From: Calothrix sp. PCC 7716
Lineage (GTDB): Bacteria > Cyanobacteriota > Cyanobacteriia > Cyanobacteriales > Nostocaceae
Direction of reading: 5' to 3'
DNA length: 64,000 nucleotides
Assembly (NCBI RefSeq): GCF_019977735.1
Contig: NZ_AP025018.1
Span: 4,902,580 to 4,966,579 of the forward strand
How positions within the stretch are numbered: the first letter of the stretch is position 1; each line of letters begins with the position of its first letter. Position numbers and translations under genes: made by a program. Under the pieces are notes generated by a model. It was not told the DNA's origin, did not search any database, and saw only the letters and a program-made list of their open reading frames with translations. Positions 1 to 12,634 of the stretch are shown here, piece by piece.

Positions 1-69
1 TAAAGAATTTAAGATTGAATTAGGCGCCGAGGTGGATAATTGATTTGGAACTGAATCGATTAATTGCAT
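1..69 (-). CDS. Start of a third RiPP-operon gene, runs off the left edge
   Basis: An open frame begins at an ATG whose complement is at 67-69 and stays open for 23 codons to the window edge. It starts 28 bases after the stop of the APH-like kinase on the same strand, so it is probably co-transcribed with the kinase and the precursor. The visible residues begin MQLIDSVPNQLSTSAPNS and show no diagnostic motif. By analogy with class V lanthipeptide and thioamitide pathways, where an APH-like kinase works with a HopA1-like lyase, a HopA1-family protein is the natural guess. That is inference from context only. A GGCGCC hexamer lies inside the frame, as in most genes native to this genome. Confidence 0.45.
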   Translation of the reverse strand, partial: MQLIDSVPNQLSTSAPNSILNSL

Positions 70-97
70 AAAATTGGTTGGCTAAAACTAAAACTAC

Positions 98-1273
98 TTA
101 AGCAAGAACAAAGTTAGAGTCAGTTAGTTCAGCTTCTGTGACTCCAAAAACTGTATAAATTGATTGTTCTGGACGACATAACAAACTCTTTGCCACCTGA
201 AGCATACAAATACCTGCATTGCCAAAGCTTTTTTCGTAATGGAGCATTGCCTGAATTCTGTTAATTAAAGCAAGACCGGCAAACTGTACGACTCGCTTCA
301 AAAAATCAGGACGGTGTTGTATAATTTCTGGAAAGTTATCAAAATAAGCTTGAGTAACGGCTGTAATAGAAGGCTGTATTTTTTCGAGTGGAATGACGGC
401 AAGACTTAAAGATTCGTTAATATTTATAGACTTACTAACAACTAAACTACCTAACCAAAACTGGAGATAGCTAGAAATAACTGTTCCCAAATCAAATGCA
501 GGGTCCCCCCAACTAGAGCGTTCCCAATCAATAAATCGAATCAGACTGATTTCATCTTGAGAGAAATTATCTTGTTCCCAATTATTGTGTAAGAGAATGT
601 TATTCAACTTCAGGTCATTGTGCGTCACACAACAAGGGTTAAAAGCAGCGCTCAAATCTAAAATTGCTTTTCCTAAACTGTCATATCGCTGATATAAAAC
701 CAAAAATTTTATTCCATCTGCGGGAATATGACCAAAAATCTCTGGACTAATCTGCTCTAATCCAAGACTAAGATGAAGAGCTTCGTTTACAACTATATCC
801 TCAGAGTCTTCTAAAAAGAAATTTTGGTATTCTTGATTGTTAAAAGTTGTGCGATGTATTGTAGATAATACCTTACCAATCAAAGATGCTATTGCAGTTG
901 GAAACTCTTCTTTCTCTGTGTATAAATCAGTCAGGTCAAAATATTTATCTAGGTAGTTAAAAACAATTATTGAATAATTTTTATCAAAATGAAGTACCTC
1001 TGATATTAATGTACGAATATGATTCAATTCTGGAAACTGTTGTAATAATTCTTGAAGGCGCCATTCATTAAAAAACTCTCCTATTGTTTTTCCTTCTCGA
1101 TTGATACGCTCTTGTTTAACAAGAAGTTGGCGCCCAGACTGCCAGTTTAATAGTAAGTTAAAGTTTTTTGCTTCTTTTAATTCAATTTCGCTGGGTTTGG
1201 GTTCTAATTTAGTACAAATTTTCTGTGTAACTAAATATTCTAATACATTGTTCGTGCTTAATGAAAATGTCAT
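98..1273 (-). CDS. APH/choline-kinase-like phosphotransferase of a RiPP cluster
   Basis: This is a 391-residue protein with the kinase core of the aminoglycoside phosphotransferase fold. The catalytic-loop motif HNDLKLNN (about residues 218-225) is followed by the metal-binding segment FIDWERSSWGDPAFDLG near residue 248. I chose the ATG at 1273, which has AAGGT upstream; the frame extends further upstream, but over the hairpin at 1301-1337. It lies 144 bases downstream of a double-glycine precursor gene on the same strand and just before another gene. In class V lanthipeptides and thioamitides, kinases of this fold phosphorylate Ser/Thr of the precursor ahead of elimination, and that role is inferred here. 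An antibiotic or small-molecule kinase is the alternative. The fold is secure; the substrate is not. Confidence 0.8.
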   Translation of the reverse strand: MTFSLSTNNVLEYLVTQKICTKLEPKPSEIELKEAKNFNLLLNWQSGRQLLVKQERINREGKTIGEFFNEWRLQELLQQFPELNHIRTLISEVLHFDKNYSIIVFNYLDKYFDLTDLYTEKEEFPTAIASLIGKVLSTIHRTTFNNQEYQNFFLEDSEDIVVNEALHLSLGLEQISPEIFGHIPADGIKFLVLYQRYDSLGKAILDLSAAFNPCCVTHNDLKLNNILLHNNWEQDNFSQDEISLIRFIDWERSSWGDPAFDLGTVISSYLQFWLGSLVVSKSININESLSLAVIPLEKIQPSITAVTQAYFDNFPEIIQHRPDFLKRVVQFAGLALINRIQAMLHYEKSFGNAGICMLQVAKSLLCRPEQSIYTVFGVTEAELTDSNFVLA

Positions 1274-1300
1274 GTTGTAAACCTTATTTAATGTAAAATT

Positions 1301-1337
1301 ACCCGCCAGCACCCTAGAAGGGTGTGGCTGTAGGGTT
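1301..1337 (-). terminator. Hairpin in the precursor-kinase gap, possible attenuator
   Basis: Nested inverted repeats lie in the 144-base gap: an outer CCGCC/GGCGG pair and an inner CACCC/GGGTG pair around AGAA. On the minus strand the stem is followed by a T-rich run. RiPP operons often place a partial terminator after the precursor gene so that the precursor is made in excess over its enzymes, and the position fits that pattern. The fold was judged by eye. Confidence 0.4.
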
Positions 1338-1417
1338 TTAGGCGGTTTTACCAACCTGTACAGAATTGACTAAACGTAAGCGGTCTAGGAATTCTTGGAG
1401 TACATGGTACTTGTCAT

Positions 1418-1705
1418 TTAAAAACTATTAAGCGGGTTGCTGAGTTGAGTGCTGATTTCCCAAGCTGTACCCCCTGCAATAAACCGAGAAATTTTTCCTT
1501 TATTTCTCCAAAGAGCTTTAGAACCTGCTACTGATTTTTCAACACTTTTAACTACACTTTTAACAATAGAGCGGGACACAGGTGTCGTTCTTCTACCACC
1601 ATAAACATCAAGTTCACCATCTCCCAGTTCATTCATGTAACTTTCGGAATCAGAAAAAAGTTCGGCGCCAGTAGGACGCAAGTCATCAATTTTAATAGTA
1701 GGCAT
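1418..1705 (-). CDS. RiPP precursor peptide with double-glycine leader
   Basis: A 95-residue peptide. Residues 1-37 form an acidic leader with the typical bacteriocin-like pattern NELGDGELDVYGG ending in Gly-Gly. Residues 38-95 form a basic core that starts RRTTPV. The core has no cysteine but holds a Ser ladder (SRSIVKSVVKSVEKSVAG) with a serine every fourth residue, a second Gly-Gly at about residues 78-79, and a hydrophobic tail ending NPLNSF. AGGAG lies eight bases before the ATG. It is probably co-transcribed with the APH-like kinase and lies divergent to a C39-peptidase exporter set that would cut after the first Gly-Gly. The mature product is unknown. Without cysteine, lanthionine rings cannot form within this peptide. 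Confidence 0.8.
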   Translation of the reverse strand: MPTIKIDDLRPTGAELFSDSESYMNELGDGELDVYGGRRTTPVSRSIVKSVVKSVEKSVAGSKALWRNKGKISRFIAGGTAWEISTQLSNPLNSF

Positions 1706-2029
1706 TTAGGAATCTCCTATTTAATTAAGGCGTTAATTGCCTGATAACACCTTTAGTTTGTGATAACAAAGTTAGAAAATCAAGAGTTTTCAACTAATTA
1801 CAAGTACATAATTAAAGGCTTTTTGTTTTGATTATTCAAAAAATGCTATTGAAAGTATCTCTATTTGGTAGATCAATTTTATGGCGCCGATGTCTTGCCG
1901 CATTAGAACAGCTTCAAAAGCCGCTACGCTTAAACATTTACAGATTGTTTGTAAAGTTTTGTAACATGTTGCAGAATTTCAGGTGTTTTGAGTCCGAAAA
2001 GAAAGCGGAATTGACAAGGAGGGACTGCT
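1706..2029. promoter_or_regulatory. Divergent control region between precursor and HTH/exporter genes
   Basis: This 324-base non-coding stretch separates the leftward biosynthetic genes from the rightward HTH and exporter genes, so it should hold both promoters. An inverted repeat TTTACA/TGTAAA (1937-1942 and 1950-1955, seven-base spacer) and the palindrome AACATGTT just downstream are candidate sites for the neighbouring HTH protein. An open frame from 1828 exists but has no ribosome site and no protein-like features, so I treat it as non-coding. Confidence 0.4.
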
Positions 2030-2563
2030 GTGGAAAATCTGAGTTTGCACTTAACGCCTTTTCAACGAAAGCTTTTACTCAAGAACCTTGAAACAAATTT
2101 GCGCGCGGAATATCGCCGGCGAATAGAAATTATGTTGCTAGCTGATGCGGGGAAGTCACAGGCGGAAATCTGTAAAGCTTTGGGATGTTGCCCTGAAACC
2201 GCACGTTATTGGATAGTGATTGCACAAACGGGAAAAGCACATTTATGGGATGACCGTCGTATCGGGCGCCCTAAGACTGTTAATGATTCGTATATAGTGC
2301 GTTTGAAGGAACTAGTGAGCCATAGTCCGCGCGAGTATGGTTATTCTTTTGGACGTTGGACAGCGCAGTGGTTAGGGAAGCATTTGGCGCAAGAGCTAGG
2401 AACTCAAGTTAGTAGTTGTCATATAAATCGTCTACTTAAGGAAATGGGACTTTCGACTCGACCAAAGAAGGACATGATTGAAGAAAATCAAAATATCCAA
2501 AATCATAAGATTAGAATTCAAGATTTATCACAAGGTAGTTGGCAACGGATACAACAGATGTAA
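2030..2563 (+). CDS. Helix-turn-helix protein of IS630-transposase N-terminal type
   Basis: A 177-residue protein starting at GTG 2030, preceded by a strong AAGGAGG ribosome site; no ATG in the frame is as well placed. Residues about 10-75 form an HTH of the IS630/homeodomain-like type (AGKSQAEICKALGCCPETAR). A second winged-helix segment follows, with WTAQWLGKHLAQELGTQVSS near residue 110. The DDE catalytic domain of a transposase is absent, and the C-terminus is a short polar tail. It stands just ahead of the exporter genes on the same strand and is probably a domesticated regulator of the locus. The alternative is a relict transposase N-terminus, but the strong ribosome site and intact frame argue for a working gene. 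Confidence 0.65.
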   Translation: MENLSLHLTPFQRKLLLKNLETNLRAEYRRRIEIMLLADAGKSQAEICKALGCCPETARYWIVIAQTGKAHLWDDRRIGRPKTVNDSYIVRLKELVSHSPREYGYSFGRWTAQWLGKHLAQELGTQVSSCHINRLLKEMGLSTRPKKDMIEENQNIQNHKIRIQDLSQGSWQRIQQM

Positions 2564-2617
2564 CGGATGGTTGATTTGTTCTTGTGTTAGGCGTTGCTAT
2601 ACATTTTTTATAAGGTT

Positions 2618-5359
2618 ATGAAATCTAGAAAATTTGTTTTGGATTTGGAAAATCTAGGTCAGCAACTGGCTCGTACATTTGGTGAAGAGTTGGAGACGCG
2701 ATATATCTCGTCTCTACATGAAAAAATACAAATTGTTGAACCAGCAGTTGGAAAAAAATTCTGGCAGGCAGAGGACGCAGCAGTTGGCATTTACCTGGTT
2801 CTTGCTGGTAAAGTTAGATTATTCGATAAAGCTGATAATTTAATCGTTACTCTGTCTGAAGAAGAGTCATTTGGCGAAGTAACTTTATTCCCAAATGAAC
2901 ATTTTCAAGCTTATTCTGCTAAAGCTTCATTAAATTTAAAACTTTGTTATGTCGAAGGTGAGTTTTTAAAACCTTTACTCAAACAGTATCCTAGCATCAC
3001 AAATCATCTCCATAATCAAGCAATTCAAAAAGATTTATTGCTAACACAATTTAATCAGTCGAGCGCCTTACCACCCCAAAGTGGAAACACAGAAGTTACA
3101 ATTCCCCAATCAAAAATCCAAAATCTATTAATTGTTGAAGACAAATCTACAATCAATCAGGCTTACTTTCCTAGTCCCACTTTACAAGTAAACCATTGGT
3201 GGCAAAGAGTTATTCGTCGCTATCCTTTCTTTGAACAGCAAAGTATGGCTGATTGCGGCGCCGCTTGTTTGGTAATGGTAAGCCGTTATTGGGGTAAGCA
3301 TTTTAGTATAAATCAACTGCGCTCGATTGGTGAATTTGACCGCAATGGCGTGTCGCTAAGAAATTTGGCTTTTTTGGCAGAGAGTGTTGGGTTTGCCACT
3401 CGACCTGTAAAAGCTAGTCTCGATAAATTAGGAACGCAAAACTTACCTGCAATTGCTCACTGGCAGGGAGACCATTATATTGTAGTTTATGAAGTGGCGC
3501 CTAAGTACGTTGTAATTGCAGACCCAGCAATTGGTCAGCGCGTTCTTAGTCATGCAGAATTTCAAGCTGGATGGACTGGGTATGCTTTATTACTAACACC
3601 CACTGCTGTACTGAAAGATGTTAATGAGAAAAATCAACCTCTGTGGGAATTTTTAAAGCTATTAAGACCTCATAAAGTTGTATTAATTGAGGTATTATTT
3701 GCTTCTATTTTACTCCAGATTTTTGGGCTAGTTTCACCACTATTTACTCAGTTAATTTTAGACCGAGTTGTAGTTCAGCGGAGTGAGTTAACCTTGACTG
3801 CTATAGGACTAGGACTGCTGATTTTTGGGGTAATGCAAATCGCTCTAACTGCACTCAGAGAATATCTTTTAGACCATACTGCAAATCGAGTTGATTTAGC
3901 TCTGATTGTCGGTTTTATTAATCATGCTTTTCGACTGCCTCTGTCATACTTTGAGTCACGCTACGTAGGAGATATTATTTCGCGCGTTCAGGAAAATCAA
4001 AAAATTCAAAAGTTTTTCACAGACCAAGCATTATCTATATTTATGGATATGCTGACAGTATTTGTATATCTGGGATTAATGTTTTGGTATAGTTGGAGAC
4101 TCACACTACTGACTTTAATAATCTTACCACCATATATATTATTAGCATTGTTTGCTACCCCTTTTCTGCGACGTGTTTCACGAGAAATCTTTGCTACTTC
4201 TAATGAAGAAACTGGATATTTAATCCAATCTTTAACCGGAATTAGCACGATTAAATCTATGGCAATTGAGCAAACAGTACGTTGGAAATGGGAAGAATTG
4301 TTTGGTAAGTCAATCAAAGCTAGCTTTTCTGGACAAATAATTGGGAACGTACTTCAAAGCATTAGCTCGTCTATTGAAATGCTAGCAACCACAGGATTAT
4401 TATGGTTAGGAGCATGGCAGGTAATTCACAATGAATTAACTATTGGGCAATTAGTTGCTTTTAATATGTTGCTCGGTAATGTCATAAACCCCTTTCAAAG
4501 GATAACTCAATTGTGGGATGAATTACAGGAGGTAATTATTGCAATTGAGCGTATCAATGATGTAATTGAAGCCAAACCAGAAGAGGATTTACAATCTAAT
4601 AATCGCAATTTTCTACCTGCAATTAATGGTCATATTTGTTTCAAAAACGTTACATTTCGTTATCAAAATGCTGATGTTAACATTCTAGAAAACATTAACT
4701 TTGAAGTACAACCAGGTCAGACTGTAGCATTAGTAGGGCGTAGTGGCTCCGGGAAAACAACTTTAGCCAAGTTACTTTTAGGACTTTATTTACCTACCGA
4801 TGGAAAAATACTTATTGATGGCGCCGATATTACTACTGTTTCTGTACGCTCGCTACGACAACAAGTAGGTGTAGTTGACCAAGATACATTTATGTTTGGT
4901 GGTACTATTCATGAGAACATTAGTATTGCTTACCCAGAAGCTCCGTTAGAAGAAATTATTGAAGTAAGTCAACTAGCAGGCGCCCATCAGTTTATCAACT
5001 CACTACCAATGGGTTACAAAACCCAAATTGGTGAAGGTGGTGGAATGCTTTCTGGTGGACAAAGACAACGCATCGCCATCGCGCGTGCGTTACTAGGAAA
5101 TCCTCAATTATTGGTTTTAGACGAAGCTACTAGCAGTCTTGACACCGAGTCAGAGCGAATAATTCAAAATAACCTCAGCAAAATCCTTCAAGGAAGAACA
5201 ACCCTAATAATTGCCCATCGTCTCTCAACAATACGCAACGCTGACCTAATTTTAGTATTAGACAAAGGCTTGCTAGTCGAAAGTGGAAATCACAATCAAT
5301 TAATGGCTAAACGTGGTCTGTACTTCTACCTTAACCAACAACAAGTTCCAATTAGTTAA
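2618..5359 (+). CDS. Peptidase-containing ABC transporter with N-terminal cNMP-binding-like domain
   Basis: About 913 residues from ATG 2618 (TAAGG upstream); a TTG eight codons earlier is less likely. Order of parts: a cyclic-nucleotide-binding-like beta-barrel (about residues 40-140), a C39 cysteine peptidase with SMADCGAAC (Cys near 212) and its His in WQGDHYIVV, six membrane helices (about 340-620), and a nucleotide-binding domain with Walker A GRSGSGKTT, signature LSGGQRQR and Walker B LLVLDEATSSLD. C39 exporters cut leaders after Gly-Gly while transporting the core, so this is the obvious processing and export protein for the precursor at 1418-1705. It is followed 11 bases later by its HlyD partner. 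The three-part architecture is typical of cyanobacteria. Confidence 0.93.
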   Translation: MKSRKFVLDLENLGQQLARTFGEELETRYISSLHEKIQIVEPAVGKKFWQAEDAAVGIYLVLAGKVRLFDKADNLIVTLSEEESFGEVTLFPNEHFQAYSAKASLNLKLCYVEGEFLKPLLKQYPSITNHLHNQAIQKDLLLTQFNQSSALPPQSGNTEVTIPQSKIQNLLIVEDKSTINQAYFPSPTLQVNHWWQRVIRRYPFFEQQSMADCGAACLVMVSRYWGKHFSINQLRSIGEFDRNGVSLRNLAFLAESVGFATRPVKASLDKLGTQNLPAIAHWQGDHYIVVYEVAPKYVVIADPAIGQRVLSHAEFQAGWTGYALLLTPTAVLKDVNEKNQPLWEFLKLLRPHKVVLIEVLFASILLQIFGLVSPLFTQLILDRVVVQRSELTLTAIGLGLLIFGVMQIALTALREYLLDHTANRVDLALIVGFINHAFRLPLSYFESRYVGDIISRVQENQKIQKFFTDQALSIFMDMLTVFVYLGLMFWYSWRLTLLTLIILPPYILLALFATPFLRRVSREIFATSNEETGYLIQSLTGISTIKSMAIEQTVRWKWEELFGKSIKASFSGQIIGNVLQSISSSIEMLATTGLLWLGAWQVIHNELTIGQLVAFNMLLGNVINPFQRITQLWDELQEVIIAIERINDVIEAKPEEDLQSNNRNFLPAINGHICFKNVTFRYQNADVNILENINFEVQPGQTVALVGRSGSGKTTLAKLLLGLYLPTDGKILIDGADITTVSVRSLRQQVGVVDQDTFMFGGTIHENISIAYPEAPLEEIIEVSQLAGAHQFINSLPMGYKTQIGEGGGMLSGGQRQRIAIARALLGNPQLLVLDEATSSLDTESERIIQNNLSKILQGRTTLIIAHRLSTIRNADLILVLDKGLLVESGNHNQLMAKRGLYFYLNQQQVPIS

Positions 5360-5370
5360 ACTAATCTATT

Positions 5371-6702
5371 ATGCAAGAACCTTTAAATCAAAATCGTCAA
5401 GTAAAACCTTCCAAATCTGTAATTAATGAATGGTCTAGTGTCACCAAGGAAATAATTGATACTTTACCGCTTGTTTGGACGCGCGGGTTAGTATATTTCC
5501 TCTTAATATTCGCAGCAACAATCTTACCTTGGGCAATGCTATCCAAAGTTGATGAAACAGGAAGTGCAAGAGGAAGACTAGAACCTCAAGGCAAAGTTTT
5601 GAAATTAGATGCACCAGTTTCTGGAACAGTTACAGCTATAAATATCAAAGAAGGTCAAACTATAACCAAAGGTCAAACTTTACTCAAACTAGACTCAGAA
5701 TTAGCACGTGCGGAACTGCAACAAACTCAGGCAAAGCTTGAAGGTTTACATAACCGTATCAGCCAGCTTGAATTACTAAAAAATCAATCGATAGCATCGA
5801 GTCGCACTCAACAATTACAAAATCAAGCACAAGATTCTGAGCAACTTGCTCAACTTAATCAAATACAACAAAGGCTAAATTCAAGCAAAAGAGTACATAT
5901 TCTTGAAAAAGGGCGCCTTAAAGTTGCAGAAAATGATGTCAAGCGTCATAAATATTTGTGGAAGCAAGGCGCCATTTCTAAGAGTAAATTAGAAGAAGTA
6001 CAAGGTGTTATGTTAGAACGTAAACGACTAAGTGAGCAAGCACAGTCAGATATCGAGCAAGCAACTACCGAAATAGCTAAACAGAAAAGCACAAATCAGC
6101 GTAACCAACGTACAGGTGAATTAGCAATTTTAGAAACTCAAAAACAACTTAAAGAACTACAGTCTCAGCATGTAGATGTTCAATCAGAAATTGCTCAAAC
6201 GAAAAAACAAATTTATTCTCTACTATTGCAAATGCAACAGCGAACACTATTAGCTCCTACTGACGGCACAATTTTTCAATTGAGTGTAGACCACGCGGGA
6301 GCAGTTCTACAGCCAGGACAAACAGTTGCTCAAGTGGCGCCGAAAGGAGTACCAATTATATTTAGAGCAGAAATACCCAGTACTGAAAGTGGTTTTTTGC
6401 GTATAGGAATGCCAGTAAAACTCAAATTTGATGCTTATCCATTTCAAGAATATGGAGTACTAGAAGGTAATCTAAGCTGGATTTCACCAGACTCGAAAAT
6501 TGTAGAAACTCCTCAAGGAAAACAAGAAAATTATGAATTAGAAATTACTTTGAAACAAACTTATATCCAAAACCAAAACAAACGTGTTTATTTAACACCA
6601 GGACAAACAGCAACTGCTGACGTAATTGTCAGACAGCGACGCATCATTGATTTTTTACTAGACCCATTTAAAAAATTGCAAAAAGATGGATTAAAGCTGT
6701 AA
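5371..6702 (+). CDS. HlyD-family membrane fusion protein
   Basis: A 443-residue periplasmic adaptor. There is one membrane segment near residues 38-58. A lipoyl/biotinyl half-motif follows (LDAPVSGTVTAINIKEGQ, about 87-104), then a long Gln/Lys-rich coiled coil (about 115-285), the second lipoyl half (LLAPTDGTIFQLS) and a beta-barrel. It links the inner-membrane ABC exporter at 2618-5359 to an outer-membrane TolC-type channel, which is not in the window. The 11-base gap to the transporter gene indicates one operon. GGCGCC sites within the gene match the rest of the native genome. Confidence 0.93.
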   Translation: MQEPLNQNRQVKPSKSVINEWSSVTKEIIDTLPLVWTRGLVYFLLIFAATILPWAMLSKVDETGSARGRLEPQGKVLKLDAPVSGTVTAINIKEGQTITKGQTLLKLDSELARAELQQTQAKLEGLHNRISQLELLKNQSIASSRTQQLQNQAQDSEQLAQLNQIQQRLNSSKRVHILEKGRLKVAENDVKRHKYLWKQGAISKSKLEEVQGVMLERKRLSEQAQSDIEQATTEIAKQKSTNQRNQRTGELAILETQKQLKELQSQHVDVQSEIAQTKKQIYSLLLQMQQRTLLAPTDGTIFQLSVDHAGAVLQPGQTVAQVAPKGVPIIFRAEIPSTESGFLRIGMPVKLKFDAYPFQEYGVLEGNLSWISPDSKIVETPQGKQENYELEITLKQTYIQNQNKRVYLTPGQTATADVIVRQRRIIDFLLDPFKKLQKDGLKL

Positions 6703-6740
6703 TTACATCATTTAACTTACCATTTTATAGGAGTCATATC

Positions 6741-7466
6741 ATGTCAGAATTTGCTACCATATCTAATGATGAGTTACTTTATCAAATAAAGTTATCTTGT
6801 CAAGTTCCTACTTTTGTCGAAGAAATAATCACTCGCAAGATTATTACACACGCAGCACAAGAAGCAGGTATTGAAGTCGAAACACATGAACTACAGCAAG
6901 CAGCAGATAACCTGCGACTAATCAATAATCTTTCCAGCGCTGATATGACTTGGCTATGGCTAGAAAAACATCATTTATCTTTAGATGAATTTGAACAATT
7001 AGTTTATCACAATGTTTTGACATCAAAATTAACAGAACATTTATTTGCAAACCAAGTTGAACAATTTTTTGTCGAACATCAGTTTGACTACGCACAAGTA
7101 GTTATGTATGAAATCGTACTTGATGATAAAGATTTAGCAATGGAACTTTTTTATGCTGTCAGCGAAGAAGATATAAGTTTTCCAGAAATTGCTCACCAAT
7201 ATATTCAAGATACAGAGCAACGTCGCTATGGTGGATACCAAGGTATACAAAGTCGCAAAGACCTAAAACCAGAAGTTTCTGCTGCTGTATTTGGCGCCAC
7301 TCCACCTCAAATTATTAAGCCAGTTATCACTTCGGAGGGTGTACATTTAATTTTTGTTGAAGAAATAATCACACCCCAATTAGATGAAACACTATATTCA
7401 CAAATTCTATTTGAGTTATTTGATAATTGGTTAAAACAAAGAATTGAGGAATTTGAATACCGTTAA
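6741..7466 (+). CDS. Parvulin-type peptidyl-prolyl isomerase of the export cassette
   Basis: A 241-residue protein with ribosome site TAGGAG before ATG 6741. The N-terminal half is a helical SurA-like chaperone region. The C-terminal half (about 115-225) resembles a rotamase domain, with RRYGGYQGI, an FGATPP turn and SEGVHLIFV. No signal peptide is seen. In cyanobacteria, parvulin-like proteins often accompany C39-ABC/HlyD pairs, and here the gene is last in that operon. It probably helps fold or present the exported peptide, but whether the rotamase site is active cannot be told from the sequence alone. Confidence 0.8.
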   Translation: MSEFATISNDELLYQIKLSCQVPTFVEEIITRKIITHAAQEAGIEVETHELQQAADNLRLINNLSSADMTWLWLEKHHLSLDEFEQLVYHNVLTSKLTEHLFANQVEQFFVEHQFDYAQVVMYEIVLDDKDLAMELFYAVSEEDISFPEIAHQYIQDTEQRRYGGYQGIQSRKDLKPEVSAAVFGATPPQIIKPVITSEGVHLIFVEEIITPQLDETLYSQILFELFDNWLKQRIEEFEYR

Positions 7467-11078: not shown

Positions 11079-11747
11079 ATGAGGAGTGATGGTGACAGCA
11101 ACACGATGAACGATCTCAAATCAGGGGCAATGCGTGAGAAGCGGTACCAGCGGATACGTCTGGAAATTTCGCGGGAGGCAGCGCGTTTGTTTTGGGAACA
11201 GGGTGTCGCTGCCACGAGTGGTGAGCAAATTGCAAATGCGGTAGGAATCTCAGTGCGTACTCTCTGGCGGTACTTCCGTAACAAGGAAAGCTGTGTTGAG
11301 CCTCTCTTCGCGCAGGATGTTGAGGAGTGTGTGGAGGTGTTGCGCCGTTGGCCTCGAGAGGTTTCCCTAGAAGATCACCTAGTCGAGTGGGCAACGAATC
11401 GCCCCAAGAATCCCGATCAGCAGTCCTACGACGATGCCGTGATCAAGATGACCGTGCTAGCTAAAAAAGAGCCGGATTTGCGCGCGGCTTGGCTAATGAC
11501 CCACGATCGAATAGAGCGCGAGCTGGCTGAGATCATCGCGGATCGCCTGCGCCGTCCGGCTGACGATATCGAGGTGCGGTTGCACGCGGCAACTGCCACC
11601 GCAGTCTTGCGCGTCATTAGTGAAGATGTCAGTGCCGCCCTAATGACGGGAGCTGATGGCGCCTCTATCGGCAACCCGATCAAGCACATAGCCTACGCCG
11701 TGCGTGTAGCCACTGGTGGAACCGTCGGCGACCCGGTCGATCCCTGA
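11079..11747 (+). CDS. TetR-family transcriptional regulator
   Basis: 222 residues from ATG 11079; an in-frame ATG at 11106 (MNDLKSG) is an alternative start. Residues about 20-65 form the TetR HTH (ISREAARLFWEQGVAATSGE and GISVRTLWRYFRNKESC), followed by an all-helical ligand domain. The GC content and codon use are far higher than in flanking genes and resemble actinobacterial sequence, suggesting transfer. A symmetric four-half-site operator stands just upstream. It probably represses the membrane-protein genes that follow. Confidence 0.9.
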   Translation: MRSDGDSNTMNDLKSGAMREKRYQRIRLEISREAARLFWEQGVAATSGEQIANAVGISVRTLWRYFRNKESCVEPLFAQDVEECVEVLRRWPREVSLEDHLVEWATNRPKNPDQQSYDDAVIKMTVLAKKEPDLRAAWLMTHDRIERELAEIIADRLRRPADDIEVRLHAATATAVLRVISEDVSAALMTGADGASIGNPIKHIAYAVRVATGGTVGDPVDP

Positions 11748-11902
11748 AAACAATAGCAAAGGCAACTAGCAACCCGATCGCCTACAAGGTGTTCAAACGC
11801 GACGGGGCATCCGAACCCGTTTCCCAGAGAGATCGGACTGGTCATTGGTGATCTCGTCAGTTCGTAAAACCATCAGCAAATGGATCAAAGGAGTTGATCA
11901 TC

Positions 11903-12634
11903 ATGTCTAAAGTACCTTCTAACTACCCGCAGCAGCCAGGGAATTCCTTGGAGCGGTCTACACCTAACAAGCCCTCCCGTCCGGGCTGGCTCGAAATCAT
12001 TGTCGGTCTTGTTGTCTATTTGATCGTTGGGTTCGTCGGTGTCTCGCAGGTCAAGCGACTTGGTCTTGACCCCGCAGTCCAAGGACTGATTTTGAGTGCG
12101 TGGACGGGTGTCGCCACGCTAATTGCTTTCGCGGTGGCGGCGCGGCTGCGGATTCGTTCCCTGAGCGCCTTCGGTGTGCGGCGCACCTCTGTTCGCTGGC
12201 TCCTGATCGGGGTTGGAGTCGGAGTGGTTGCCTTCGTGCTCAAGACTCTGGCGATCCTGGCATGGATCAAGGTCACCGGGGATACGAACAATGTCCAGGA
12301 TGTTTATGTAGAGGGTGTTCGCGGTAGGTTACCGTTTCTGGTTTTAAGCCTGGTGTTCCTCACCGTCTTCTCACCCTTCGGCGAAGAACTGCTTTACCGT
12401 GGCATCGTCACTAATGGGCTACTGCGCTACGGTTCGTTCGTTAGTGTCGTCGGCAGCACCGTGATCTTCGCCCTCATGCATGGGATCAACACCGTCTTCC
12501 CCGCAGCCGTGGTGGCGGGTCTCGCCACCGCCGAGATCTTCCGCCGCAGTGGATCGATCTGGCCCGGTCTTGTGGTTCACTTCGTTTTCAACCTGCCCTC
12601 GTTCCTGATCATGATATTTGTTGGCACGGGCTGA
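11903..12634 (+). CDS. CPBP-family membrane metalloprotease, actinobacterial-like
   Basis: 243 residues from ATG 11903, with AAAGGAG nine bases upstream; a TTG three codons earlier is less likely. A Pro-rich N-terminus precedes about seven membrane helices. CPBP (CAAX/bacteriocin-processing) motifs are present: GEELLYRG near residue 160 and FALMHGIN near 188-195, giving the Glu and His metal and catalytic residues. Family members include prenyl-protein proteases and bacteriocin self-immunity proteins. High GC and no HIP1 or GGCGCC in the gene suggest a source different from both the host and the next genes. Function here is unknown. Confidence 0.88.
   Translation: MSKVPSNYPQQPGNSLERSTPNKPSRPGWLEIIVGLVVYLIVGFVGVSQVKRLGLDPAVQGLILSAWTGVATLIAFAVAARLRIRSLSAFGVRRTSVRWLLIGVGVGVVAFVLKTLAILAWIKVTGDTNNVQDVYVEGVRGRLPFLVLSLVFLTVFSPFGEELLYRGIVTNGLLRYGSFVSVVGSTVIFALMHGINTVFPAAVVAGLATAEIFRRSGSIWPGLVVHFVFNLPSFLIMIFVGTG

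What the first reader, a model, noticed from the sequence alone, without database searches (positions are those of the whole stretch)
1..7466. Candidate new RiPP system: Gly-Gly precursor, APH-like kinase and full peptide exporter
A 95-residue precursor with a bacteriocin-type leader is probably co-transcribed with an APH-like kinase and another gene leaving the window. It lies divergent to an HTH protein, a C39-peptidase ABC transporter, HlyD and a parvulin. Gly-Gly cleavage and C39 export are established knowledge. An APH-like kinase acting on a peptide is known from class V lanthipeptides and thioamitides. Here the core lacks cysteine, so the final chemistry would differ from lanthionine formation.
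Basis: partly seen in the sequence, partly recalled or inferred. Interest (0 to 1): 0.82.

Follow-up and report, generated by a model that had tools for sequence, protein, structure and literature searches.

The report
Cyanobacterial dehydrated-peptide locus with unusual reductase
A cyanobacterium carries genes to make, chemically alter and export a small peptide; the kinase–lyase pair is of a known kind, but a third, conserved enzyme of unusual make-up beside it may convert the altered residues into mirror-image (D-) amino acids by a route not yet described.

Summary
In detail: a 95-residue Gly-Gly precursor, an APH-like kinase, and a divergent HTH/C39-ABC/HlyD/parvulin export cassette. The gene leaving the window is a HopA1-type lyase, followed by an aldo/keto-reductase-like (AKR-like) gene and a second parvulin. 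Kinase plus HopA1 is the class V lanthipeptide/thioamitide Ser/Thr dehydratase pair, and cyanobacterial loci of this type with Gly-Gly leaders and variable cores were already predicted (Eyles 2021; Liang 2022). So it is not a new system as such. What looks new is the AKR-like gene. Of 65 such genes examined, 58 sit behind HopA1; the other 7 lie within 5.3 kb of a different dehydratase, LanM. An enzyme shared by two unrelated dehydratases points to their common product, dehydroalanine/dehydrobutyrine. With LanM, 38 of 42 precursors are Cys-free when the AKR-like gene is present, 0 of 33 in control loci (leader family is confounded). The AKR-like family lacks the canonical AKR Lys and His in 64 of 64. 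Best reading: the core is dehydrated at Ser/Thr, partly reduced to D-Ala/D-Abu, then cleaved and exported. Dehydration is well supported by homology; reduction is inference. No experiment was possible.

The parts
1..69 (-). first 23 codons of the HopA1-type lyase gene (368 aa; rest left of the window, G000:C1:4901542-4902648)
   Evidence: Pfam HopA1 PF17914 9.3e-63; PDB match to lyase chain 9dk1_B (LxmY) 3.3e-8
98..1273 (-). APH/LxmK-like peptide kinase, HxDxxxxN motif HNDLKLNN
   Evidence: Pfam APH 8.9e-9; NCBIfam LxmK 4.5e-22, 78.6 bits, under its cut-off of 315
1418..1705 (-). RiPP precursor, 95 aa: leader of 37 residues ending in Gly-Gly, Cys-free core of 58 residues with 14 Ser/Thr
   Evidence: leader homologues at 86 of 95 kinase-HopA1 loci
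2030..2563 (+). HTH protein related to IS630 transposase N-terminus, conserved beside the exporter
   Evidence: present upstream of 62 of 73 C39 genes over 1000 bits, the other 11 lie at a locus edge
2594..5359 (+). cNMP-binding + C39 peptidase + ABC transporter (leader cleavage and export)
   Evidence: Pfam cNMP_binding, Peptidase_C39 4.9e-38, ABC_membrane, ABC_tran
5371..6702 (+). HlyD-type periplasmic adaptor
   Evidence: TIGR01843 6.9e-63, over its cut-off
6741..7466 (+). PpiC/SurA-type parvulin of the peptide-maturation type
   Evidence: TIGR04500 1.8e-22, under its cut-off; Rotamase

Best explanation
The locus makes a ribosomal peptide whose core Ser/Thr are phosphorylated by the APH-like kinase and eliminated by the HopA1 lyase to dehydroalanine/dehydrobutyrine (class V-type dehydration). 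The AKR-like protein encoded next then reduces some of these to D-Ala/D-Abu, as LanJ enzymes do, but with a different fold and an active site that lacks the usual AKR Lys and His. Since the core has no Cys and no cyclase or decarboxylase is encoded in the operon, no thioether ring forms. The C39 domain cuts after Gly-Gly and the ABC/HlyD machine exports the product, with the two parvulins as helpers. Shown by homology and synteny: kinase, lyase, precursor family, exporter. Inferred: that this precursor is the substrate, the number of dehydrated residues, and above all the reduction step. Biological role (probably a secreted antagonistic or signalling peptide) is a guess.
For: Gene order precursor-kinase-HopA1-AKR-parvulin on one strand. 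Kinase best match LxmK; lyase matches HopA1 and the LxmY structure. The residues matching CaoY Arg187, Lys219, Arg229, Tyr236 by spacing are Arg205, Lys236, Arg246, Tyr253 here; all four kept in 58 of 58 lyases of AKR+ loci, Lys236 in 31 of 32 of precursor loci without an intact AKR (CaoY residues from PMC9486802). AKR-like: 58 of 65 downstream of HopA1 (52 of 58 at 60 bases or less), the 7 others near LanM with NHLP-type precursors: 5 of 7 within 203 bases, 2 at 3.1 and 5.3 kb. LanM+AKR cores 38 of 42 Cys-free against 0 of 33 in LanM loci without it. Adjacent Ser/Thr are avoided in AKR+ cores (77 pairs, 154 expected), not in AKR- cores (31, 28 expected).
Against: No chemistry was seen. The AKR-like protein has lost canonical catalytic residues (Lys to Val110, His to Gly141 in 64 of 64) and could be non-catalytic or do something else. 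30 precursor loci have kinase-HopA1 without an intact AKR, so it is not needed for the pathway as such. In HopA1 loci its presence does not go with fewer Cys: 67 of 97 against 21 of 31 Cys-free. The LanM comparison is confounded with leader family and is not independent per precursor: the 4 Cys-bearing precursors are all those found in L102 and L153, so 5 of 7 loci are wholly Cys-free and 2 of 7 wholly not. In L165 and L166 LanM is on the other strand, tail to tail with the AKR-like gene. The kinase falls well below the LxmK cut-off. (On checking, these locus-level facts made me lower the confidence from a first 0.58 to 0.55.)
Confidence: 0.55

Rival explanations
1. Kinase and lyase dehydrate the core, and the AKR-like protein is not a reductase of dehydro residues: it is a scaffold, leader-binding or chaperone subunit of the dehydratase, or acts on another group; the product is a linear dehydropeptide.
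For: Loss of the AKR Lys and His in 64 of 64. 30 precursor loci without an intact AKR. Strictly conserved but unusual residues (W140-G-W142, D78, H80, Y84, R216, N218, K246) fit a binding role as well as catalysis.
Against: Pairing with two unrelated dehydratases, and mostly Cys-free cores in the LanM case, fit a shared chemical intermediate better than a shared protein partner.
Confidence: 0.29
2. The kinase-HopA1 pair does not modify this precursor; the precursor is an unmodified class II-type bacteriocin or signal exported by the C39 cassette, and the pair is a neighbour with another role (as in the orphan pairs near phylloquinone genes).
For: Cores are highly variable; several look like unmodified amphipathic or two-peptide bacteriocins. 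Orphan pairs without precursor exist (8 of 95 fetched loci).
Against: 86 of 95 pairs have leader-bearing ORFs on the same strand; the lyase Lys is kept in 89 of 90 lyases at precursor loci and lost in 8 of 8 orphans.
Confidence: 0.1
3. An N-terminal pyruvyl/oxobutyryl group from a first Ser/Thr is reduced by the AKR-like protein to a lactyl-type group, as by ElxO or TaaRed.
For: AKRs usually reduce carbonyls (recalled); TaaRed does such a step in a HopA1 pathway (PMC8153245, passage seen).
Against: Only 16 of 97 AKR+ cores start with Ser/Thr after Gly-Gly, the window core starts with Arg, and cleavage by C39 happens at export, away from a cytoplasmic enzyme (general knowledge).
Confidence: 0.05

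Closest known systems
Cyanobacterial Family 1A precursors with HopA1/phosphotransferase (Eyles et al. 2021, PMC8153245) and type-B class V LanA (Liang et al. 2022, PMC9486802)
   Same: Cyanobacterial; kinase beside HopA1; conserved leader with Gly-Gly; very variable core without conserved Ser, Thr or Cys (Family 1A); often several precursors per locus
   Different: The passages seen do not mention an AKR gene; type B was collected among ORFs with Cys in the C-terminal part, which the window core lacks. Their sequence lists are in supplements that I could not open, so identity was not tested directly
Class V lanthipeptides (cacaoidin, lexapeptide, pristinin)
   Same: APH-like kinase + HopA1 lyase; kinase hits LxmK, lyase hits the LxmY structure; D residues from a reductase are known there
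   Different: No Cys in the core, no cyclase, no Cys decarboxylase found in the operon; candidate reductase is AKR-like rather than F420-dependent; C39/HlyD export
LanJ dehydroamino-acid reductases (LanJA zinc/NADPH, LanJB flavin, LanJC F420; classes as in passages of PMC11519912)
   Same: Proposed reaction: Dha/Dhb to D-Ala/D-Abu beside LanM or class V dehydratases
   Different: AKR fold (PF00248) rather than these families; unproven
Cyanobacterial 'bacteriocin' clusters with long C39 transporter, HlyD and SurA (groups I, II, VI of Wang et al. 2011, PMC3140520)
   Same: CAP_ED/cNMP + C39 + ABC transporter, HlyD, SurA-type parvulin, Gly-Gly precursors (section 5 read)
   Different: Their main text holds no 'kinase', 'phosphotransferase', 'aldo' or 'reductase' (HopA1 was not among the terms)

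Membership tests
Class V lanthipeptide | APH-like kinase (LanK) | tested here: met
   LxmK profile 4.5e-22 but 78.6 bits against a cut-off of 315: homologue, not equivalog
Class V lanthipeptide | HopA1-type lyase (LanY) with catalytic residues | tested here: met
   PF17914 9.3e-63; Arg205, Lys236, Arg246, Tyr253 present, matched by spacing
Class V lanthipeptide | Cys in the core for (Me)Lan rings | tested here: not met
   Core of the window precursor has no Cys; 143 of 188 AKR+ cores are Cys-free
Class V lanthipeptide | cyclase (LanX or LanC) or Cys decarboxylase in the cluster | tested here: not met
   None among the nine operon and export proteins scanned; other genes further off were not scanned
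Cyanobacterial Family 1A / type B precursors | cyanobacterial kinase-HopA1 locus with conserved Gly-Gly leader and variable core | tested here: met
   no direct comparison with the published sequence lists
LanJA, LanJB or LanJC reductase | zinc MDR, flavin or F420 reductase family | tested here: not met
   Only Pfam match at 0.1 is Aldo_ket_red 5.1e-8
Canonical aldo/keto reductase | catalytic Asp-Tyr-Lys-His (tetrad recalled) | tested here: not met
   Lys to Val110 and His to Gly141 in 64 of 64; Asp and Tyr positions not cleanly alignable
Dehydroamino-acid reductase by function | Dha/Dhb reduced to D residues | not testable with these tools
   needs enzyme assay
C39-type peptide export | C39 peptidase domain with catalytic residues, ABC, HlyD, Gly-Gly substrate | tested here: met
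   stretches ADCGAAC, HWQGDHYIV and ADP, read by eye as the Cys, His and Asp sites

The most novel reading that the evidence does not exclude
The AKR-like protein is a fourth structural class of dehydroamino-acid reductase, shared by class V-like and LanM pathways of heterocystous-type cyanobacteria. In the loci whose cores alternate Ser/Thr with hydrophobic residues, some ending in Trp-rich stretches (L107, L154; also L100), complete dehydration and reduction gives alternating L/D peptides that fold as gramicidin-like beta-helical membrane channels made from ribosomal precursors without an epimerase.
Probability: 0.12. Interest if true: 0.88.

Novelty: new variant of a known kind. Interest (0 to 1): 0.6.

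Why it matters
Three reductase families are known to put D-amino acids into lanthipeptides. A fourth, with an AKR fold but without the AKR Lys and His, would be new enzymology, would explain why these cyanobacterial pathways dehydrate peptides that often have no Cys, and would give a genome-mining handle for linear D-residue peptides. The alternating cores make it directly testable whether a ribosome-made peptide can imitate gramicidin by dehydration and reduction.

Tried and rejected
Tried without result: AlphaFold model of the window kinase with its Cylindrospermum homologue (two sequences) gave mean pLDDT 40.3, too poor for a fold search, so none was run. The kinase has no significant sequence match in the PDB (best 0.059). 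Paper searches for an AKR in such pathways found none (aldo-keto reductase + RiPP + lanthipeptide, 0 papers; 'keto reductase' at 0 in all 15 listed of 17 papers); this covers only the held open-access library, not supplements.

Rejected: that the product is a lanthipeptide (no Cys, no cyclase in the operon); that the HTH gene is a decayed transposon (conserved beside the exporter in 62 of 73 cases); that AKR presence marks Cys-free cores in HopA1 loci (67 of 97 against 21 of 31); that the tree proves several switches of the AKR-like gene between HopA1 and LanM (7 LanM rows fall in two places, but one clade is not rejected, AU p 0.231).

The Ser/Thr two-residue period of AKR+ cores is modest: z 5.7 in 97 non-redundant cores, 3.1 without eight extreme loci, 2.5 in the weakest leave-one-locus-out run (200 shuffles); hydrophobic residues show the same parity (z 5.6), so plain beta-strand amphipathy would also give it. 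In an earlier smaller set lags 2, 4 and 6 stood out; with more loci lag 2 alone is weak (z 1.5) and lag 5 is up (z 4.5). Strict four-fold alternation is in 9 of 97 AKR+ and 1 of 31 AKR- non-redundant cores, but counting every row, near-copies included, in 15 of 188 and 7 of 100, which is no difference. In the window core 10 of 14 Ser/Thr are on odd positions; its parity score is not significant (p 0.08).
Full report
Place. The window is positions 4902580-4966579 of contig 1 of a 12.4 Mb genome.

Observation. The kinase most likely starts at the ATG at 1273, not at the TTG at 1354. The gene that leaves the window begins at position 69 on the minus strand. The DNA to the left shows HopA1 lyase (368 aa), then an AKR-like protein (342 aa, overlapping HopA1 by 7 bases) and a second parvulin (258 aa), on the same strand as precursor and kinase. 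This is one probable operon: precursor, 144 bases, kinase, HopA1, AKR-like, parvulin.

What the enzymes are. The kinase matches Pfam APH (8.9e-9) and, best among NCBIfam models, the class V lanthipeptide kinase LxmK (4.5e-22; the next, methylthioribose kinase, 6e-4). It stays far under the LxmK cut-off (78.6 of 315 bits), so it is a homologue and not an equivalog. I built no tree with small-molecule kinases. The lyase matches HopA1 (9.3e-63) and the solved chain 9dk1_B (3.3e-8), the lyase of the LxmKY complex (passages of PMC12141560). Liang et al. (PMC9486802; abstract and parts 1 and 2 of 3 of section 4 read) showed for CaoY that Arg187, Lys219 and Arg229 matter. By spacing these are Arg205, Lys236 and Arg246 here. 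Among 98 aligned HopA1 proteins Lys236 is kept in 58 of 58 from AKR+ loci, 31 of 32 from precursor loci without an intact AKR, and 0 of 8 from orphan pairs.

Relatives. PF17914 occurs in 214 of 217 genomes of the family. I fetched stretches of up to 20 kb around HopA1 or AKR hits. Of 95 loci with a kinase and a HopA1 (L126, a duplicate of L077, left out), 86 have at least one leader-homologous ORF on the kinase's strand; 57 have an AKR-like gene over 400 bits; 8 have neither precursor nor AKR; 1 has AKR without a recognised precursor. The leaders are alike and end in Gly-Gly in most; the cores vary widely.

The AKR-like gene. A protein search found it in 60 of 217 family genomes and in 9 of 386 genomes drawn from the phylum, all 9 in the same order. 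I examined 65 genes over 400 bits: 63 of the 71 rows plus 2. Of the 8 rows left out, two were fetched but fragmentary (L129, L150), one looks like a duplicate contig copy, three are fragments not fetched, and two full-length ones were not fetched (G090:C186 and G019:C1:1663134). Of the 65, 58 lie behind a HopA1 gene (52 at 60 bases or less), 56 of these with a precursor and 57 with the second parvulin. The other 7 have no HopA1 in the stretch. All 7 stretches hold a LanM gene: within 203 bases in 5 of 7 and at 3.1 and 5.3 kb in 2; in L165 and L166 it is on the opposite strand, tail to tail, with the AKR-like gene in line with precursor genes instead. The four LanM scanned with Pfam carry DUF4135 and LANC_like, and the three scanned with NCBIfam match TIGR03897 at 6e-262 or better. 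The three precursors scanned are of the NHLP-leader family; the rest were recognised with a profile made from such precursors. LanM and kinase-HopA1 give the same product, dehydrated Ser/Thr. An enzyme shared by both most simply acts on that product.

Cores in the LanM case. In those 7 loci 38 of 42 NHLP-type precursors have no Cys in the core, odd for a lanthionine synthetase. The 4 with Cys are the only ones found in L102 and L153; so by locus 5 of 7 are wholly Cys-free. In 20 LanM loci without the gene (taken mostly from the top of the hit list, not at random) two precursor families gave 33 cores after a Gly-Gly/Ala site, all 33 with Cys (two family members without such a site were dropped, and single precursors would be missed by my clustering). 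Ser/Thr content is alike (0.189 and 0.179). The leader families differ, so this is association, not proof. In HopA1 loci the gene does not track Cys (67 of 97 against 21 of 31 Cys-free).

Is it a working reductase? Profile alignment with 14 AKRs of the same genome (8 of the 14 show the D-T-A-x-x-Y motif by my pattern) puts Val110 where AKRs have the catalytic Lys and Gly141 where they have the His. Both are invariant in the 64 rows aligned (57 HopA1-linked, 7 LanM-linked; one short linked row dropped). The Asp/Tyr part does not align cleanly (F74, H80 or Y84 are candidates). The tetrad itself is recalled knowledge. Loss of part of the carbonyl-reducing set together with strict conservation of other residues (D78, H80, Y84, W140, W142, H196, R216, N218, K246) fits a changed reaction such as C=C reduction, or a non-enzymatic role. 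LanJ reductases of three other families do the proposed step in class II and class V pathways (PMC11519912, passages; RosJ in PMC12291118, passages).

Core patterns. From 294 cores (188 AKR+, 100 AKR-, 6 with an AKR fragment; 18 precursors without a recognised Gly-Gly and 3 short or ambiguous ones dropped), 131 remain at 50% identity. In 97 AKR+ cores adjacent Ser/Thr pairs are half as frequent as in shuffles (77 against 154) and Ser/Thr keep to one parity (z 5.7); 31 AKR- cores show neither (z 0.6). Nine of 97 AKR+ cores have four Ser/Thr in strict alternation (2.6 expected; at most 8 in 500 shuffles), 1 of 31 AKR- (0.3 expected); over all rows the shares are equal, 15 of 188 and 7 of 100. 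The clearest (L107, L154, L100) are runs of Thr/Ser with Val/Ile/Leu, some with Trp-rich ends, and recall gramicidin A (comparison from memory). The signal shrinks when such loci are left out, and hydrophobic residues show the same parity, so I treat the L/D beta-helix as a bold reading, not the main one. The window core is different: Lys/Ser/Val-rich, Ser every fourth residue between positions 9 and 25, with the look of a cationic helix, in style like the LanM+AKR cores of L165 and L166 (by eye); its own parity is not significant (p 0.08).

Verdict. Dehydration locus of a known predicted type, export cassette of a known type (Wang et al. groups I/II/VI, PMC3140520, abstract and section 5 read), with a conserved AKR-like third enzyme that I take as a candidate new dehydroamino-acid reductase. 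I found no paper on that in the held library.

Noticed in passing
L050:9696-12019, L058:7907-10337, L065:8060-10437, also L066, L068, L069, L112, L128: An orphan kinase-HopA1 pair without precursor, lyase Lys replaced by Gln/Glu/His in 8 of 8. Neighbours: an o-succinylbenzoate-CoA-ligase-like and a 4HBT thioesterase gene in 7 of 8 loci, and menC, menA and isochorismate synthase in 6 of 8 (not in L050, the own genome) (clusters, named from L050 and L058; the ligase is under its cut-offs). A search with one of these lyases hits 214 of 217 family genomes, but the hits include the RiPP paralogues. A kinase with a pseudo-lyase may serve vitamin K1 metabolism; no paper in the library holds both 'HopA1' and 'phylloquinone'.
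   Followed up: partly
window 2030-2563; same gene beside C39 in most loci: HTH protein related to the IS630 transposase N-terminus is conserved upstream of the C39 exporter (62 of 73, the other 11 at a locus edge), so it is probably a domesticated regulator.
   Followed up: partly
L056, L057, L060, L110, L111, L114-L116, L118-L120, L124, L125: AKR- loci with 4 to 8 leader-bearing ORFs, mostly in tandem, whose Cys-free cores are unusually conserved (..STLTKLAEAFVNVYGIGHIAYLAKSYS.. and a second type); unlike the variable cores elsewhere this suggests a conserved, perhaps signalling, role.
   Followed up: no
L078, L083, L085, L090, L093: Two different precursor types alternate in tandem, with small-residue-rich helical-looking cores, like two-peptide bacteriocins.
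   Followed up: no
AKR+ cores: Ser/Thr-Pro within the first six core residues in 23 of 97 AKR+ and 4 of 31 AKR- non-redundant cores; the window core has Thr-Pro there too.
   Followed up: no
L148, L158, L159, L163: Cores with repeated Asn-Ala-Asn-Thr-x-Gly-Asn-type motifs, of unknown meaning.
   Followed up: no
L062:5594-7969; also L123 (genes starting at 6572 and 7714): A second, more divergent HopA1-kinase pair in tandem with a fuller pair; in L062 its lyase Lys is replaced by Asn.
   Followed up: no
window 11079-12634: TetR regulator and CPBP/Rce1-like protease genes in a stretch of higher GC (0.54-0.57 against 0.39-0.44 between 8 and 11 kb), look acquired from elsewhere.
   Followed up: partly
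L155:10897-11904: A microviridin-type ATP-grasp gene (MvdD, 1.9e-158) sits within the LanM/AKR-like/NHLP region; a similar gene is in L166 (cluster c4).
   Followed up: no
L052, L063, L129: Fragmentary AKR-like reading frames behind HopA1, i.e. decay of the third gene in some relatives.
   Followed up: no
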